NCBI RefSeq assembly: GCF_005144585.1
Contig: NZ_SSMQ01000069.1
Location: 1-64,000, forward strand
Origin: Polyangium fumosum
GTDB lineage: Bacteria; Myxococcota_A; Polyangia; Polyangiales; Polyangiaceae
Direction of reading: 5' to 3'
Length of the DNA: 64,000 nucleotides
A program made the translations under genes and the position numbers. The notes below the pieces were generated by a model. That model was given only the letters and a program-made list of their open reading frames with translations. It was not told where the DNA came from and made no database searches. Positions 1 through 50,977 of this stretch are shown piece after piece (the stretch's first letter is position 1; each line of letters opens with the position of its first letter).

Positions 1-83
1 CTTCCCCAAATGGTCCAGGGCTGGCCCTGGTTCGGGTCGAGGGGCGAACAGCCCCCGCGGGGCCCGGGGCAGCGCCCCGGCGC
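1..83. repeat. Right end of a dispersed palindromic element, cut by the window edge
   Basis: From about position 11 the sequence matches the outer right arm of the four elements described below: a CTGG/CCAG hairpin, then GTCGAGGGG, ACAGCCCCC and a final CCGGGGCAGCGCCCCGG hairpin. The rest of this copy lies left of the window. It is separated by only about 27 bases from the next copy, so two elements sit in tandem here. Confidence 0.7.
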
Positions 84-110
84 GGCGGCTTGCGATGAGA
101 CCAATGCTCA

Positions 111-367
111 GGCCAGGGGCTGGACCCAGGCTCGATGAACTGCGCCATGCGCAGTTCATCGAACAGGCCCGGTCAAGACCGGCAACGACGTTGCCCACCA
201 CGACAGACAGCCGCGGGCGCGGTTCGGCTGGCAACCCGGGTTCTTCGTCGGCCTGTTTGAAAAACTGCGCACCGCGCAGTTTTTCAACCCTGGGTCCAGC
301 GCCTCGCTGGTCCGGGGTCGAGGGGGCGGACAGCCCCCTCGCGGGGTCCGGGGCAGCGCCCCGGCGC
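111..367 (+). repeat. Dispersed palindromic element, copy A
   Basis: This copy holds two perfect hairpins with 3-nt loops. One is at 132-162 (arm TCGATGAACTGCGC, loop CAT) and one at 257-287 (arm TTGAAAAACTGCGC, loop ACC). A centre of about 94 bp lies between them, and a G+C-rich outer right arm ends in CCGGGGCAGCGCCCCGG. Most of the outer left arm is missing compared with copies B-D. The centre begins like copy C (acaggc..ggtcaaga..ggc), which sets its orientation. It abuts the 3' end of the response regulator gene. No transposase is encoded. The spurious reading frames through it are not counted as genes. Confidence 0.85.
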
Positions 368-391
368 GACGCTTCCCGACGAAACCCGCGC

Positions 392-2261: not shown

Positions 2262-2268
2262 GGGCGTA

Positions 2269-2607
2269 GCGCCGGGGTTTCACCCCGGGCCCCGACCAGG
2301 GGTTGTCCACCCCTGGACCCGGACCAGGCACGGCCTGGACCGAAGGTGGAAGAACTGCGCGATGCGCAGTTCTTCCAACGGGCCGGTGGCAAGACCACGG
2401 ACGTGCGTTTCAAGCTGGCGACGGGCACGTTGCCAGTCGAGCCGTCAGCGCTGCGGCCTTGGCTGGCAGGCCCGTCGCCGGTCTTGACCCTGGCTGTTCG
2501 ATGAACTGCGCATCGCGCAGTTCATCGACCCTGGGTCCAGCGCCTCGCTGGTCCGGGGTGGAGGGGGCGGACAGCCCCCTCCTGGGGCCTGGGGCAACGC
2601 CCCAGCT
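2269..2607 (-). repeat. Dispersed palindromic element, copy B
   Basis: This is a full-length copy, inverted relative to copy C. Its reverse complement matches the centre of C closely (gtcaaga..ggcgacg, gcagcgctgacgg, cgtcgccagcttgaaa). Its hairpins are at 2347-2377 (arm TGGAAGAACTGCGC, loop GAT) and 2498-2528 (arm TCGATGAACTGCGC, loop ATC). The outer arms are GCCGGGGTTTCACCCCGG on one side and CTGGGGCAACGCCCCAG on the other. It fills nearly all of the gap between two convergent genes. Confidence 0.88.
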
Positions 2608-2647
2608 CCGCGCCCCCAAGCAGAAACCTACGCTCAGCAAAACCTGC

Positions 2648-27580: not shown

Positions 27581-27593
27581 GCTTCAGGCGCGG

Positions 27594-27930
27594 AGCTGGG
27601 GCTTTGCCCCAGGCCCCAGCAGGGGCTATCCGCCCCTGCACCCGGACCAGCCAGGGGCTGGACCCGGGGTCGATGAACTGCGCGATGCGCAGTTCATCGA
27701 ACAGGCAGGGTCAAGACTGGCGACGACTCTGCCCACCAAGACAGCAGCGCTGACGGTTCGACTGGCGACGTACCCGTCGCCAGCTTGAAACCAACCTCGA
27801 TGGTCTTGCCACCGGCCCGTTGGAAGAACTGCGCTCCGCGCAGTTCTTCCACCCGCGGTCCAGGCCGTGCCTGGTCCGGGGTCGAGGGGGCGGACAGCCC
27901 CCCGCGGGGTCCGGGGCAGCGCCCCGGCGC
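27594..27930 (+). repeat. Dispersed palindromic element, copy C (reference copy)
   Basis: This is a complete copy. The outer left arm is CTGGGGCTTTGCCCCAG, then AGGGGCTATCCGCCCCT. Hairpin 1 is at 27670-27700 (arm TCGATGAACTGCGC, loop GAT). A centre of about 120 bp follows (gtcaagactggcgacg ... cgtcgccagcttgaaa). Hairpin 2 is at 27821-27851 (arm TGGAAGAACTGCGC, loop TCC). The outer right arm ends in CCGGGGCAGCGCCCCGG. Left and right arms are reverse complements in plan, but the centre is asymmetric and gives the element a direction. It fills the gap between two convergent genes. Confidence 0.88.
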
Positions 27931-27942
27931 AACGGACAAACC

Positions 27943-37687: not shown

Positions 37688-39055
<1,368 letters not shown>

Positions 39056-39072
39056 TCGTCCAGCGAAGCGTG

Positions 39073-39341
39073 GCGCCGGGGTTTCACCCCGGGCCCGACC
39101 AGGGGCTGTCCGCCCCTGGACCCGGACCAGCGCCAGCGCTGGACCTTGGGTGGAAGAACTGCGCGATGCGCAGTTCTTCCAACAGCCCGGAGGATGCCCT
39201 CGGGCAGGGTCGCTGCGGGTCTTGAATCGGCCTGTGCGATGAACTGCGCACCGCGCAGTTCATCGTCCTGGGTCCAGCGCCTCGCTGGTCCGGGTCCAGG
39301 GGCGGACAGCCCCGGTGGGGTCTGGGGCAAAGCCCCAGCGC
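39073..39341 (-). repeat. Dispersed palindromic element, copy D
   Basis: This copy is inverted like copy B and has a shorter centre: about 55 bp remain between the hairpins instead of about 120. Hairpins are at 39151-39181 (arm TGGAAGAACTGCGC, loop GAT) and 39237-39265 (arm CGATGAACTGCGC, loop ACC). Outer arms are GCCGGGGTTTCACCCCGG and CTGGGGCAAAGCCCCAG. It lies between the FHA activator and the mutase remnant, whose 3' ends face each other. Confidence 0.87.
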
Positions 39342-39353
39342 AACGACAGCCCG

Positions 39354-48103: not shown

Positions 48104-49951
48104 ATGGCGGCTAAAAAGACCCGTAAATTGGCCAAAAACACCAAGAAGAAGGCAGCTCCCCGAGCCAAGGCGAGTCGGCGCGCGGCCCCGCCCCGAAAAA
48201 CGGCGGCGGCGAAGCTCAAAAAGAAGCCGCGCGCGCAGGCCACGAAGCGAGCGAAGCCAGCCGCGAAGAAGGCCGTCCGCAAGGCCGCCGCCGCGCGCGC
48301 GACGAAACGCGCAACGGTGGTGAAAAAGCGCGTGGCTGCCAAGAAGGCCAAGGCGACGGCAAAGCCGAAGAAAAAAACGGTCGTCCGCGCCAAACGCGCG
48401 CCGGTCCGGAAGGCGCAAAGCCCTGCGAAGAAGAGGGTCAAGCGCGCGATCGCGAAGAAGAAGTCGAAGAAGGTCGCGCGCAAACCCGCCCGCGCCGCCG
48501 AGCGTCGCCAAGCCCGCGCGATCCCGCGCAAGAAGAAGGCGGCGCTCCCGAAGGTCAAACGCGCGGCGCGCCCGGCCGCGAAGGCTCGCCCGGCGAAGCG
48601 CGTCGCCAAGCCGGCCCGCCCGAAGCGCCCGGCGCGGCCCGCCCCGAAGGCCCGCGCCGTCGAGAAGGCCCGCAAGAAGGCCGAGCTCCGGGAGGCGCGC
48701 GAGGCGAGGGAGGCCAAGGAGGCCAAGAAGTCCGAGGCCGCCGCCAAGGCCCGCGCCGCGCGTGAGGCGGAGGAGGCCGAGCGGCTCGCCGCCAAGGCCG
48801 AGCGGCTCGCCGCCAAGGAAGCTCTCCGAAAGGGGAAAGCGGCGAAGAAGGACAAGGCGGCCCGCAAGGAGAAGGAGGCCGAGCAGGCCCCGGCGCCGAA
48901 GGAGAAGGCCAAGGCCCTCCCGCTCAAGGAGAAGGGCAAGGCCGCCAAGGAGAGGCCGGCCGAGGAGCGCGAGCCGGCCGCCAAGGAGAAGGGCGCCAAG
49001 GAAAAGGGCGCCAAGGAAAAGGGCGCCAAGGAGAAGGGCGCCAAGGAGAAGGGCGCCAAGGAAAAGAAGAAGGGCAAGGAGGGCAAGCTCCTCAAGGCCG
49101 ACAAGCCGCGCGAGGGTCGCCTCATCGCGGTGCGCGAGCCTGCGCCCCGGGTCGTGGCACTCCCGCTGCCGCTCCTTCCCCCGCAGCGCCGCGCGACCAT
49201 CGAGGAGCGCTCGGAGGTCATCGAGAAGCGCCTGACCTCGCAGAGCGAGGAATTCCAGAAGAACTACACGGACCGCTTCGACATGTCGTGGATCTTCCAC
49301 GACAGCGCGCTCGAGGGCGTCGTGTACACGTTCGAGGAGCTACGGACGGCGCTCTCCGGGTATGCCCCGCCGGTCTCGGACACGAACCTTCAGCCGACCT
49401 ACGACGACATTCGCCGCCACAAAGAGGCGATCGAGTTCGTCCGCGATTACGGCAAGAAGAAGCTGCCCATTACGATCGACGTGATCAAGAAGATCTACCT
49501 CATCCTCCATCCGGAAGAGGGAGACATCAAGACCGTCAAGTATCGCAAGGACATCCCGCAGCACCGGCTGTATTTCCACGAGTATGCGCCGCCGGACAAG
49601 ATCGCCTACAAGGTGCGGCAAATCGTGGATTGGCTGAACGATCCCGAGACGCGCAAGACCCGCAATGGCCTGCGCATCGCCGCCCGCGCCCACTACGACC
49701 TCCTGCGCGTCTATCCCTTCCAGTCGGATAGCGGCAAGGTCGCGCGGCTGTTCATGAACCTCCTGCTCATCCGCTCGGGCCTGCCGCCGTCGATCATCCA
49801 CTCGACCGAGCGCCAGCGTTACTACGAGGCGCTCAAGGGCTCGGCCACGACCGTGCTCCAGATGGTGCAGGAGGCGGTCGAGAACGCGCTCTCCAGCGTG
49901 GAGAAGCTCCTCGACGAGTACGAGACGCGAAAGCGTGCGTTCGTGAGCTGA
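48104..49951 (+). CDS. Histone H1-like / degenerate Fic-domain fusion protein
   Basis: This 615-residue protein has residues 1 to about 330 rich in Lys/Ala/Arg/Pro (AAKKTRKLAKNTKKKAA, AAKKAVRKAAAARATKRA), as in bacterial H1-like DNA-binding tails. The end of this region is a 15-bp repeat giving AKEKG units. From about 360 a Fic-like fold begins: FDMSWIFHDSALEGVVYTFE, KKIYLILHPEEGD, LRIAARAHYDLLRVYPF. The catalytic Fic motif HPFxDGNGR reads YPFQSDSGK (about 536-544), so the His, Asn and Arg needed for AMP transfer are changed. It is probably non-catalytic or has a different reaction. The ATG is chosen because the basic domain begins there. Confidence 0.78.
   Translation: MAAKKTRKLAKNTKKKAAPRAKASRRAAPPRKTAAAKLKKKPRAQATKRAKPAAKKAVRKAAAARATKRATVVKKRVAAKKAKATAKPKKKTVVRAKRAPVRKAQSPAKKRVKRAIAKKKSKKVARKPARAAERRQARAIPRKKKAALPKVKRAARPAAKARPAKRVAKPARPKRPARPAPKARAVEKARKKAELREAREAREAKEAKKSEAAAKARAAREAEEAERLAAKAERLAAKEALRKGKAAKKDKAARKEKEAEQAPAPKEKAKALPLKEKGKAAKERPAEEREPAAKEKGAKEKGAKEKGAKEKGAKEKGAKEKKKGKEGKLLKADKPREGRLIAVREPAPRVVALPLPLLPPQRRATIEERSEVIEKRLTSQSEEFQKNYTDRFDMSWIFHDSALEGVVYTFEELRTALSGYAPPVSDTNLQPTYDDIRRHKEAIEFVRDYGKKKLPITIDVIKKIYLILHPEEGDIKTVKYRKDIPQHRLYFHEYAPPDKIAYKVRQIVDWLNDPETRKTRNGLRIAARAHYDLLRVYPFQSDSGKVARLFMNLLLIRSGLPPSIIHSTERQRYYEALKGSATTVLQMVQEAVENALSSVEKLLDEYETRKRAFVS
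48980..49069 (+). repeat. 15-bp in-frame tandem repeat in the H1/Fic gene
   Basis: Five full units of gccaaggaRaagggc and a sixth partial unit encode AKEKG. The units differ only by A/G changes at one position, so the array is recent and may vary in copy number. Confidence 0.85.
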
Positions 49952-50122: not shown

Positions 50123-50977
50123 ATGACCGTGACGAACCAGCCGCGCGCGCTCGCCCAGGAGACCTTCAGGCGCCTCCGCGTGATCCACCCGGACGCGCAC
50201 TGCGAGCTCGACCATGTGAACCCGTTCCAGCTCCTCGTCGCCACGGTGCTGAGCGCCCAGACGACGGACGTGCTCGTCAATCAGATCACGCCGAAGCTGT
50301 TCGCCCGCTGGCCCGACGCGCCCTCGCTCGCGAAAGCCCCGATCCCCGAGGTCGCGGCGCTCCTGCGCGAGCGGCTCGGGATGTTCAACCAGAAAGGGAA
50401 GAACATCGTCGGGCTCGCGAAAAAGCTCGTGGAGAAGCACGGCGGCGAAGTGCCACGGACGCTCGCCGCGCTCGTGGAGCTGCCCGGCGTCGGGCGAAAG
50501 ACGGCGAACGTGGTGCTCGGCGTCGCGTTTGGCCGGCCCGAGGGCGTCGTGGTGGATACGCACGTGCAGCGGTTGTCCCAGCGGCTCGGCTGGACCACGG
50601 AGCAGAAGCCCGAGACGATCGAGAAGGCGCTCTGCGCGCTGTTCCCGCCCGAAGACTGGAACATGGTGTCGCTCGTTTTGATCTTCCACGGGCGGCGGGT
50701 CTGCTTCGCGAGAAAGCCCGCGTGCGCCGCGTGCGGGGTGAACGACGCGTGCCCGAGCGCATTCGCTGCGGAGAACGTGGGGCGCAAGCCGCCGAGGAAG
50801 CGGCCGACCGTGGTCATCGAGGCAGCGCCGAAGAAGAAGGCCGCGACGACGAAGGGCGCCACGAAGAAGGCCGCGGCGACGAAAGCGGCCGCGAAGGTCG
50901 CCGTGAAGAAGGGCAGCGCGACGCGGATCGCGCCGAAAAAAGCGGCCGCGAAAGGGAAGGGGAGCGGGCGGGCTTAA
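50123..50977 (+). CDS. nth: Endonuclease III with histone-like C-terminal tail
   Basis: This 284-residue DNA glycosylase/AP lyase excises oxidised pyrimidines. It has the HhH motif LVELPGVGRKTANVVLG with the catalytic Lys, the catalytic Asp in VVVDTHVQRL, and a [4Fe-4S] loop C-x6-C-x2-C-x5-C (CFARKPACAACGVNDAC). The catalytic core ends near residue 215, as in E. coli Nth. An extra tail of about 60 residues follows, almost all Lys/Ala/Thr (EAAPKKKAATTKGATKKA), like the H1-like half of the adjacent protein. It may raise DNA affinity. ATG start. Confidence 0.92.
   Translation: MTVTNQPRALAQETFRRLRVIHPDAHCELDHVNPFQLLVATVLSAQTTDVLVNQITPKLFARWPDAPSLAKAPIPEVAALLRERLGMFNQKGKNIVGLAKKLVEKHGGEVPRTLAALVELPGVGRKTANVVLGVAFGRPEGVVVDTHVQRLSQRLGWTTEQKPETIEKALCALFPPEDWNMVSLVLIFHGRRVCFARKPACAACGVNDACPSAFAAENVGRKPPRKRPTVVIEAAPKKKAATTKGATKKAAATKAAAKVAVKKGSATRIAPKKAAAKGKGSGRA

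What the first reader, a model, noticed from the sequence alone, without database searches (positions are those of the whole stretch)
27594..27930. A family of oriented, long palindromic intergenic elements (four copies plus one partial)
Copies at 111-367, 2269-2607, 27594-27930 and 39073-39341 (plus an end at 1-83) share outer G+C-rich arms, two hairpins with core ACTGCGC-NNN-GCGCAGT and, in A, B and C, an asymmetric centre; that of D is shortened. The centre shows that A and C point one way and B and D the other. Hairpin 1 is always the TCGATGAA type and hairpin 2 the TGGAAGAA type (or a variant). They encode no protein and lie only between genes. They resemble a REP/BIME or MITE family, but I do not recognise this form.
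Basis: seen in the sequence. Interest (0 to 1): 0.88.

Follow-up and report, generated by a model that had tools for sequence, protein, structure and literature searches.

The report
Hairpin repeats behind Polyangium stop codons
The repeated palindromes are real: they belong to a large family of hairpin-rich, non-coding DNA elements of the myxobacterial genus Polyangium that sit just after the stop codons of genes, are partly spread by a cut-and-paste jumping gene, and appear to keep swapping hairpins with one another.

Summary
The four elements are real and belong to a Polyangium-wide family. The core hairpin has 347 hits in the 13-Mb genome, reversed control 0; an arm model hits 6 of 6 Polyangium genomes and 0 of 33 other genomes of the family and order. 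The unit is an arm of four perfect hairpins, found alone or as an inverted pair (mostly 300-350 bp). Arms start right behind stop codons: 86 of 136 within 30 nt (random positions 7.6%). The two core hairpins differ in type in 122 of 122 parsed pairs.

Some copies carry an outer repeat, CTGAGCAYKGGTCTCATC, 9-10-bp target duplications and empty sites in a sister species; an intact 1504-bp IS with these ends encodes a Tn5-like IS4 transposase. The 'fifth copy' at 1-83 is an arm of such an element, abutting copy A. Most full copies (110 of 139) lack the outer repeat; how they move is open. REP-type (Y1) transposases were not found in three of six genomes.

At nine shared sites hairpin alleles have often changed to other alleles of the pool; the loop triplet is unchanged in 2 of 16, and one centre is inverted in place. 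I read this as a terminator-like 3'-end repeat, partly a Tn5-type MITE, under concerted evolution.

The parts
1..88 (-). Arm (right end) of another element; its remainder lies beyond the contig start
   Evidence: Arm model 59.5 bits, cut off at the 3' side; profile positions 260-343
94..111 (-). Outer inverted repeat of the Tn5-like IS/MITE (GATGAGACCAATGCTCAG), abutting copy A inside its third hairpin
   Evidence: Exact match
112..372 (+). Copy A without its left outer arm; core hairpins at 132-162 and 257-287; right arm faces the stop of the minus-strand gene 392-1027
2264..2613 (-). Copy B, full dimer between convergent genes (2 nt and 35 nt from the stops); core hairpins at 2347-2377 and 2498-2528; empty slot in G003 and G001
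27588..27935 (+). Copy C, full dimer between convergent genes (8 nt and 8 nt from the stops)
27596..27612 (+). h1 of copy C, left arm (CTGGGGCTTTGCCCCAG)
   Evidence: Sequence; family alignment
27619..27639 (+). h2 of copy C, left arm (GCAGGGGCTATCCGCCCCTGC)
   Evidence: Sequence
27647..27661 (+). h3 of copy C, left arm (CCAGCCAGGGGCTGG); the IS inserts into this hairpin in other copies
   Evidence: Sequence
27670..27700 (+). H4 of the left arm of copy C (TCGATGAACTGCGC-GAT-GCGCAGTTCATCGA)
27821..27851 (+). H4 of the right arm of copy C (TGGAAGAACTGCGC-TCC-GCGCAGTTCTTCCA)
39068..39346 (-). Copy D, dimer with short centre; begins 12 nt behind the stop of the plus-strand gene 37688-39055

Best explanation
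A genus-specific family of non-coding repeats at gene 3' ends. SHOWN: the unit is an arm of four paired hairpins (h1-h2-h3-H4) whose outer end usually lies just behind a stop codon; it occurs alone or as two inverted arms around an asymmetric centre, often one arm per gene between convergent genes. SHOWN: a subset also carries the ends of a Tn5-like IS4-family insertion sequence, is flanked by 9-10-bp duplications and is missing from the same place in a sister species, so this subset moves, or recently moved, as a MITE. SHOWN: that IS sits in the third hairpin of other copies, and about half of the target sites read are hairpin apices. SHOWN: at shared sites whole hairpin alleles and loop triplets differ between sister species more than neutral neighbours do, mostly for alleles present elsewhere in the pool, while stems stay paired; at one site the centre is inverted between unchanged outer arms. 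INFERRED: the transposase favours hairpin apices such as terminators; once behind a gene, the arm serves as its terminator or mRNA 3' structure; copies exchange hairpins by short-tract conversion, and recombination between inverted arms flips the centre; two different H4 types avoid one long perfect palindrome. NOT SHOWN: how the majority without IS ends arrived.
For: Copies and ends. Hairpins: 99.6% of stem cells paired in 241 distinct arms, with two-sided changes. Place: 110 of 136 arms face a stop, 86 within 30 nt, 24 face a start, 2 lie in a called gene. IS/MITE: outer repeat at >=13 of 18 positions at 71 of 398 ends, 62 of them 22-23 bp from h1, controls 3 and 0; 8 distinct insertions with identical 9-bp flanks, 3 with one mismatch, 2 with identical 10-bp flanks; transposase matches NF033590 (254.6 bits, cut-off 160) and Tn5 structures (E 2e-36); two repeat-bearing copies absent from G004. 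Turnover: loop same in 2 of 16; 38 of 45 differing hairpins or loops have both alleles elsewhere in the pool; third codon positions differ by 9.0% and aligned intergenic DNA by 6.4%. Inversion.
Against: No RNA or activity data. The IS was not found in G003 at E 1e-20 although G003 has 183 core hits. 110 of 139 dimers lack the outer repeat on both sides and no duplication was seen beside TIR-less copies. By folding energy only 5 of 15 target rows are among the most stable (at most 4 of 34 control stretches as stable). Identical h1 in 9 of 15 and h2, h3 in 6 of 18 shared-site comparisons is near what plain divergence would leave; the case for exchange rests on the loops, on many changes at once and on pool alleles. 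Some same-slot copies may be independent insertions. 24 arms face starts, and three units lie in divergent gaps. Gene calls are my own.
Confidence: 0.58

Rival explanations
1. All copies are MITEs of the Tn5-like IS; those without the outer repeat are old copies that lost it by mutation or deletion.
For: Copies with one end only exist (16 of 139). The repeat looks eroded at A in G004 and at the right end of A (14 of 18). Both testable copies with two good repeats are absent from G004, whereas 17 repeat-poor sites are occupied there. Terminal branches are shorter for repeat-bearing copies (0.049 v 0.075).
Against: Repeat-less ends share a sharp boundary about 4 bp outside h1 with no trace of the repeat on average. 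In 78 of 100 stop-facing repeat-less arms the stop is within 22 nt, leaving no non-coding room for the repeat. Five repeat-poor insertions, three of them solo arms, are absent from G004 without a visible duplication.
Confidence: 0.3
2. REP/REPIN family mobilised by a RAYT (Y1) transposase.
For: Solo units and inverted pairs, position behind genes, many copies.
Against: No Y1_Tnp at E 0.001 in G002, G003 and the 2-contig G004, two in the genome with fewest cores; the single one here is 152 aa and shows no such hairpin array around it; no GTAG or CGTC within 12 nt of 276 core hairpins.
Confidence: 0.05
3. Selfish clutter: the copies do nothing and lie behind stop codons only because insertion elsewhere is harmful.
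For: Coding fraction is 0.83-0.90 in the sampled stretches of this genome; divergent gaps hold few units (3 of 38).
Against: In long tandem gaps the copy still hugs the stop (11 v 467 nt, 450 v 28, 315 v 4); h1 points to the stop; stems stay 99.6% paired.
Confidence: 0.3
4. The apparent hairpin exchange at shared sites is repeated independent insertion into the same intergenic slots, or quasi-palindrome correction inside single copies, not conversion between copies.
For: At slot C the elements of G003 and G002 start at other positions behind the stop, that of G003 in the other orientation; at C22:107501 the centre has another length and type in G004.
Against: Most w/G004 pairs keep the orientation and share more alleles of h1, h2, h3 and H4 stem than non-orthologous pairs (60, 33, 33, 75% v 15, 4, 16, 31%); in C22:52932 outer arms agree while the centre is inverted.
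Confidence: 0.25

Closest known systems
REP / BIME / REPIN repeats
   Same: High copy number, palindromic, intergenic, between convergent or tandem genes, as single units and inverted pairs (PMC3733652: abstract and passages)
   Different: Unit is ~100 bp with four hairpins rather than 20-40 bp; no GTAG or CGTC tag near H4; no RAYT in half of the genomes; a subset has DDE-transposon ends
IS50/Tn5 group of the IS4 family and its MITEs
   Same: DNA-binding, DDE and dimerisation domains, Tn5 similarity over the catalytic part, 18-bp ends, 9-bp duplications
   Different: The non-autonomous copies carry hairpin arrays with no relation to the IS interior seen (no core hairpins inside the IS); most family members lack the ends
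REP-targeting insertion sequences, e.g. ISRm22 (IS4 family) in Sinorhizobium meliloti
   Same: An IS4-family element inserted into repeated palindromes (PMC1525189: passages)
   Different: Here the IS ends also flank the palindrome repeats themselves and mobilise them
Modular intergenic repeats such as BOX, ERIC, NEMIS (recalled, not compared)
   Same: Structured intergenic repeats, partly built of modules
   Different: No relation tested; Rfam gave no match at threshold for copy C

Membership tests
MITE of an IS4-family (Tn5-like) IS | Ends shared with an autonomous IS | tested here: met
   For a subset: both ends in 13, one end in 16, none in 110 of 139 full dimers; the set was enriched for such copies. 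IS found intact in G004
MITE of an IS4-family (Tn5-like) IS | Target-site duplication of the family's size and empty sites | tested here: met
   For the subset with ends; not seen for copies without ends
MITE of an IS4-family (Tn5-like) IS | Transposition by that transposase | not testable with these tools
   Needs an assay
REP / REPIN | Extragenic palindromes in high copy, single or as inverted pairs | tested here: met
REP / REPIN | GTAG or CGTC tag at the hairpin foot | tested here: not met
   0 of 276 core hairpins within 12 nt
REP / REPIN | RAYT (Y1) transposase in the genome | tested here: not met
   None at E 0.001 in 3 of 6 genomes; the one in this genome is IS200-sized
Intrinsic terminator / 3'-end RNA element | Hairpin directly behind the stop codon, read in a fixed sense | tested here: met
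   86 of 136 arms within 30 nt of a stop they face
Intrinsic terminator / 3'-end RNA element | Ends or stabilises transcripts | not testable with these tools
   No RNA data; the family alignment shows no T run behind the hairpins (by eye)

The most novel reading that the evidence does not exclude
In one bacterial genus many native terminators have been replaced by a single transposable, self-homogenising set of hairpin cassettes: arms lock on behind stop codons with fixed polarity, serve as (often bidirectional) 3' ends, and trade whole hairpins and loop triplets among hundreds of sites by conversion and inversion, with a mode of movement that needs no transposon ends besides the Tn5-like one.
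Probability: 0.28. Interest if true: 0.82.

Novelty: new variant of a known kind. Interest (0 to 1): 0.6.

Why it matters
It joins in one family two classes usually kept apart, REP-like repeats and MITEs of a DDE transposon, and offers a countable system for hairpin evolution: paired stems whose loop triplets and alleles turn over faster than the DNA around them. If the arms end transcripts, a mobile element has been rewriting gene ends across a genus of myxobacteria, a group known (recalled) for large genomes and natural products. It also accounts for assembly breaks: many contigs of this genome, the window's included, begin near the outer repeat.

Tried and rejected
RAYT as mobiliser: disfavoured. 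Autonomous element hidden between distant arms: the 1.8-kb gap in L130 encloses what reads as an ordinary duplicated gene by its ORFs, and the ~440-bp 'long centre', found in five further places by BLAST, is not obviously coding (no domain search was made on these). Duplications beside TIR-less copies: none seen. A single origin of TIR copies: 20 changes on the tree, at least 8 forced, fewer than in shuffles (26.7, 0 of 500 as low), so clustered but not one clade; recombination makes the tree unreliable. Rfam on copy C: one sub-threshold hit. First thought that every allele difference at shared sites was excess: recheck showed that single changes in h1-h3 are near plain divergence.

Papers: eight searches listed nothing on such repeats in Polyangium or Sorangium; listings only. 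PMC12306157 (passages) has no Polyangi-, Myxococc- or Sorangium in its main text. PMC3696898, a Sorangium genome paper that holds the words palindromic and intergenic, was seen in the listing only and is not excluded as a prior report.

Caveats on counts: genes come from my own codon-usage script. Sampled contigs were chosen, not random. One search scored at most 98 candidates per genome and one search scored 40 of 341, so their counts are lower bounds. include loci fetched by the outer repeat itself. In one search, two rows (L266, L284) are one insertion, as are two rows each of L282 and L287; one search holds 14 distinct sites, one (L268) weak. One w element counts as two rows (C167:180825 and 181150).

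Full report
What was claimed and what is there. The four copies exist as described, with profile boundaries A to 372, B 2264-2613, C 27588-27935 and D 39068-39346. A and C run plus, B and D minus, D least clearly. The window is the first 64 kb of contig C166 of a 12.98-Mb, 201-contig genome. Equal contig lengths tie G003 to y55x31 and G005 to 15x6, so the genus of the window is Polyangium by kinship; its species is not known to me.

Census. The 17-base core has 347 forward hits in the whole genome, reversed control 0. With GA/TC flanks it has 248 hits here, 37, 431, 183, 177 and 480 in the five other genomes of the genus, and 1 hit in one of the 33 remaining genomes. The arm covariance model matches 6 of 6 genomes of the genus (79 to 98 arms, 98 being the scoring cap) and none of 33 others. 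In 884,627 bp of this genome I found 35 element clusters; plain scaling would give about 500, but the contigs were chosen.

Anatomy. Each arm reads from outside in: GGCGNNGC, h1, h2, h3, H4. In 241 distinct arms 99.6% of stem cells are paired, with many two-sided changes and a handful of common alleles per hairpin. Full dimers peak in the 310s and 340s (50 and 41 of 139). Left and right H4 differ in type in 122 of 122 parsed dimers, while both sides share the loop triplets GAT, TCC and GGT. Solo arms often carry another H4 such as GCATCGACCGC-NNN-GCGGTCGATGC.

Place. With my gene calls, arms in six genomes face a stop codon in 110 of 136 cases, 24 face a start and 2 lie in a called gene; 86 of 136 lie within 30 nt of the stop, against 7.6% of random intergenic positions and senses. 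In this genome, of 38 units found with the arm profile, 19 lie between convergent genes, 13 in tandem gaps, 3 in divergent gaps, 1 in a called gene and 2 at the contig edge, against 108 convergent, 418 tandem and 108 divergent gaps. The empty slots at C in G001 and at C22:147268 in G004 hold plain terminator-like hairpins.

A mobiliser for some copies. Several copies carry CTGAGCAYKGGTCTCATC outside h1. At 13 or more of 18 positions it is found at 71 of 398 distinct ends, 62 of them 22-23 bp from h1, against 3 and 0 in two control strips; the set includes loci fetched by that repeat. This genome holds 64 such repeats at up to one mismatch, reversed control 0, many near contig starts. G004 (2 contigs) has four full copies of a 1504-bp IS with these ends. 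Its transposase matches Tnp_DNA_bind, DDE_Tnp_1 and Dimer_Tnp_Tn5, NCBIfam IS4 (254.6 bits, cut-off 160) and Tn5 structures; the aligned D, D and E fit the Tn5 catalytic residues as I recall them. G002 has one at 84% identity, G005, G001 and G000 have pieces, and none was found in G003 at E 1e-20. Of 23 repeat pairs listed, 9 rows (8 distinct insertions) have identical 9-bp flanks and 3 differ by one base; cross-pair controls reach 8 or 9 in 18 of 506 comparisons, as several IS copies sit in the same h3 sequence GGCACGGCC; the other 11 rows match poorly at 9 bp, two of them having identical 10-bp flanks. Two copies with both ends are absent from G004 with the target present once, one of them inside CTCTCCCGCGCGGGAGAGG. 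By eye 7 of 14 distinct sites are hairpin apices, three of them h3 of other elements; by folding energy five sites have at most 4 of 34 control stretches as stable, and one of these five is not among my seven.

The fifth copy. Window 94-111 is an exact outer repeat following an arm and abutting A's h3. This looks like an element inserted into A and cut by the contig end.

The majority. 110 of 139 full dimers lack the outer repeat on both sides, share a boundary about 4 bp outside h1, and 78 of 100 stop-facing repeat-less arms are within 22 nt of the stop. Repeat-bearing copies are scattered on a tree of the copies. Of 35 rows compared with G004, by my reading 17 repeat-poor sites are occupied there (some by a solo arm only; one site makes two rows; C22:133669 has one good end), 5 repeat-poor sites are empty, 1 is unclear, 2 repeat-bearing sites are empty, and 9 rows could not be placed. 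I could not decide between loss of the ends and a second mode of movement.

Turnover. Nine sites shared with G004, with flanks 91-97% identical, hold elements 84-93% identical; 105 pairs of paralogues within the genome average 83.8%. Third codon positions differ by 9.0% and aligned intergenic DNA outside elements by 6.4%. Alleles are the same in 9 of 15 h1, 6 of 18 h2, 6 of 18 h3, 12 of 16 H4 stems and 2 of 16 loops; non-orthologous pairs give 15, 4, 16, 31 and 20%. So only the loops are as different as unrelated copies. The differences come in bursts: h1 differs by 0 (9), 1 (3) or 5 (4) bases, h2 by 0 (6), 1 (4) or 3-6 (8), loops by all three bases in 7 of 16, and in 38 of 45 differing comparisons both alleles occur elsewhere in the pool. 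Centres that could be compared are 71-89% identical in the same sense. At C22:52932 the outer 45 nt agree in the same sense (0.935 and 0.913, reversed 0.627 and 0.660), while the inner part agrees better reversed (0.875 against 0.745). At C (G003), B (G002) and C22:107501 (G003) the orthologous slot holds an element of opposite orientation, at C not at the same base.

Reading. Position, polarity and paired stems point to a 3'-end function; this is inference. The Tn5-like MITE step and the empty sites are shown by sequence. Allele turnover is shown; conversion and arm recombination are the simplest mechanisms but are inferred, and some same-slot copies may be separate insertions. It works like REPs but fails the REP tag and RAYT tests; the repeat-bearing subset passes the MITE tests that could be run.

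Noticed in passing
L187:251-690, L196:8056-8522, L206:17640-18028, L012:1677-2086, L044:1861-2236: A second, ~440-bp non-coding repeat (70-75% identical) lies inside or beside hairpin elements in these loci, as a long centre in L012.
   Followed up: partly
L175:9550-9640, L176 and L177 (G002, window-syntenic region): In G002, ~87-bp tandem units with the hairpin GCATCGACTGCGC-NNN-GCGCAGTCGATGC have grown inside or beside h3 of several elements.
   Followed up: no
L248:1940-2140 (G004): The ~1-kb centre of one element with both outer repeats is filled with tandem copies of a unit like GGCACGGCCTCGTACCTCC.
   Followed up: no
L046:1470-1900 (G000:C165:65272): The only Y1 transposase found in this genome: a 152-aa IS200-like gene between small hairpins unrelated to the family.
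   Followed up: partly
1180-1235: Three near copies of CACCTGTACACATGCGCCGG in a row in the intergenic space after the response-regulator-like gene at 392-1027.
   Followed up: no
48970-49080 and 50820-50950: Lysine/alanine-rich 15-bp in-frame tandem repeats inside two predicted genes.
   Followed up: no
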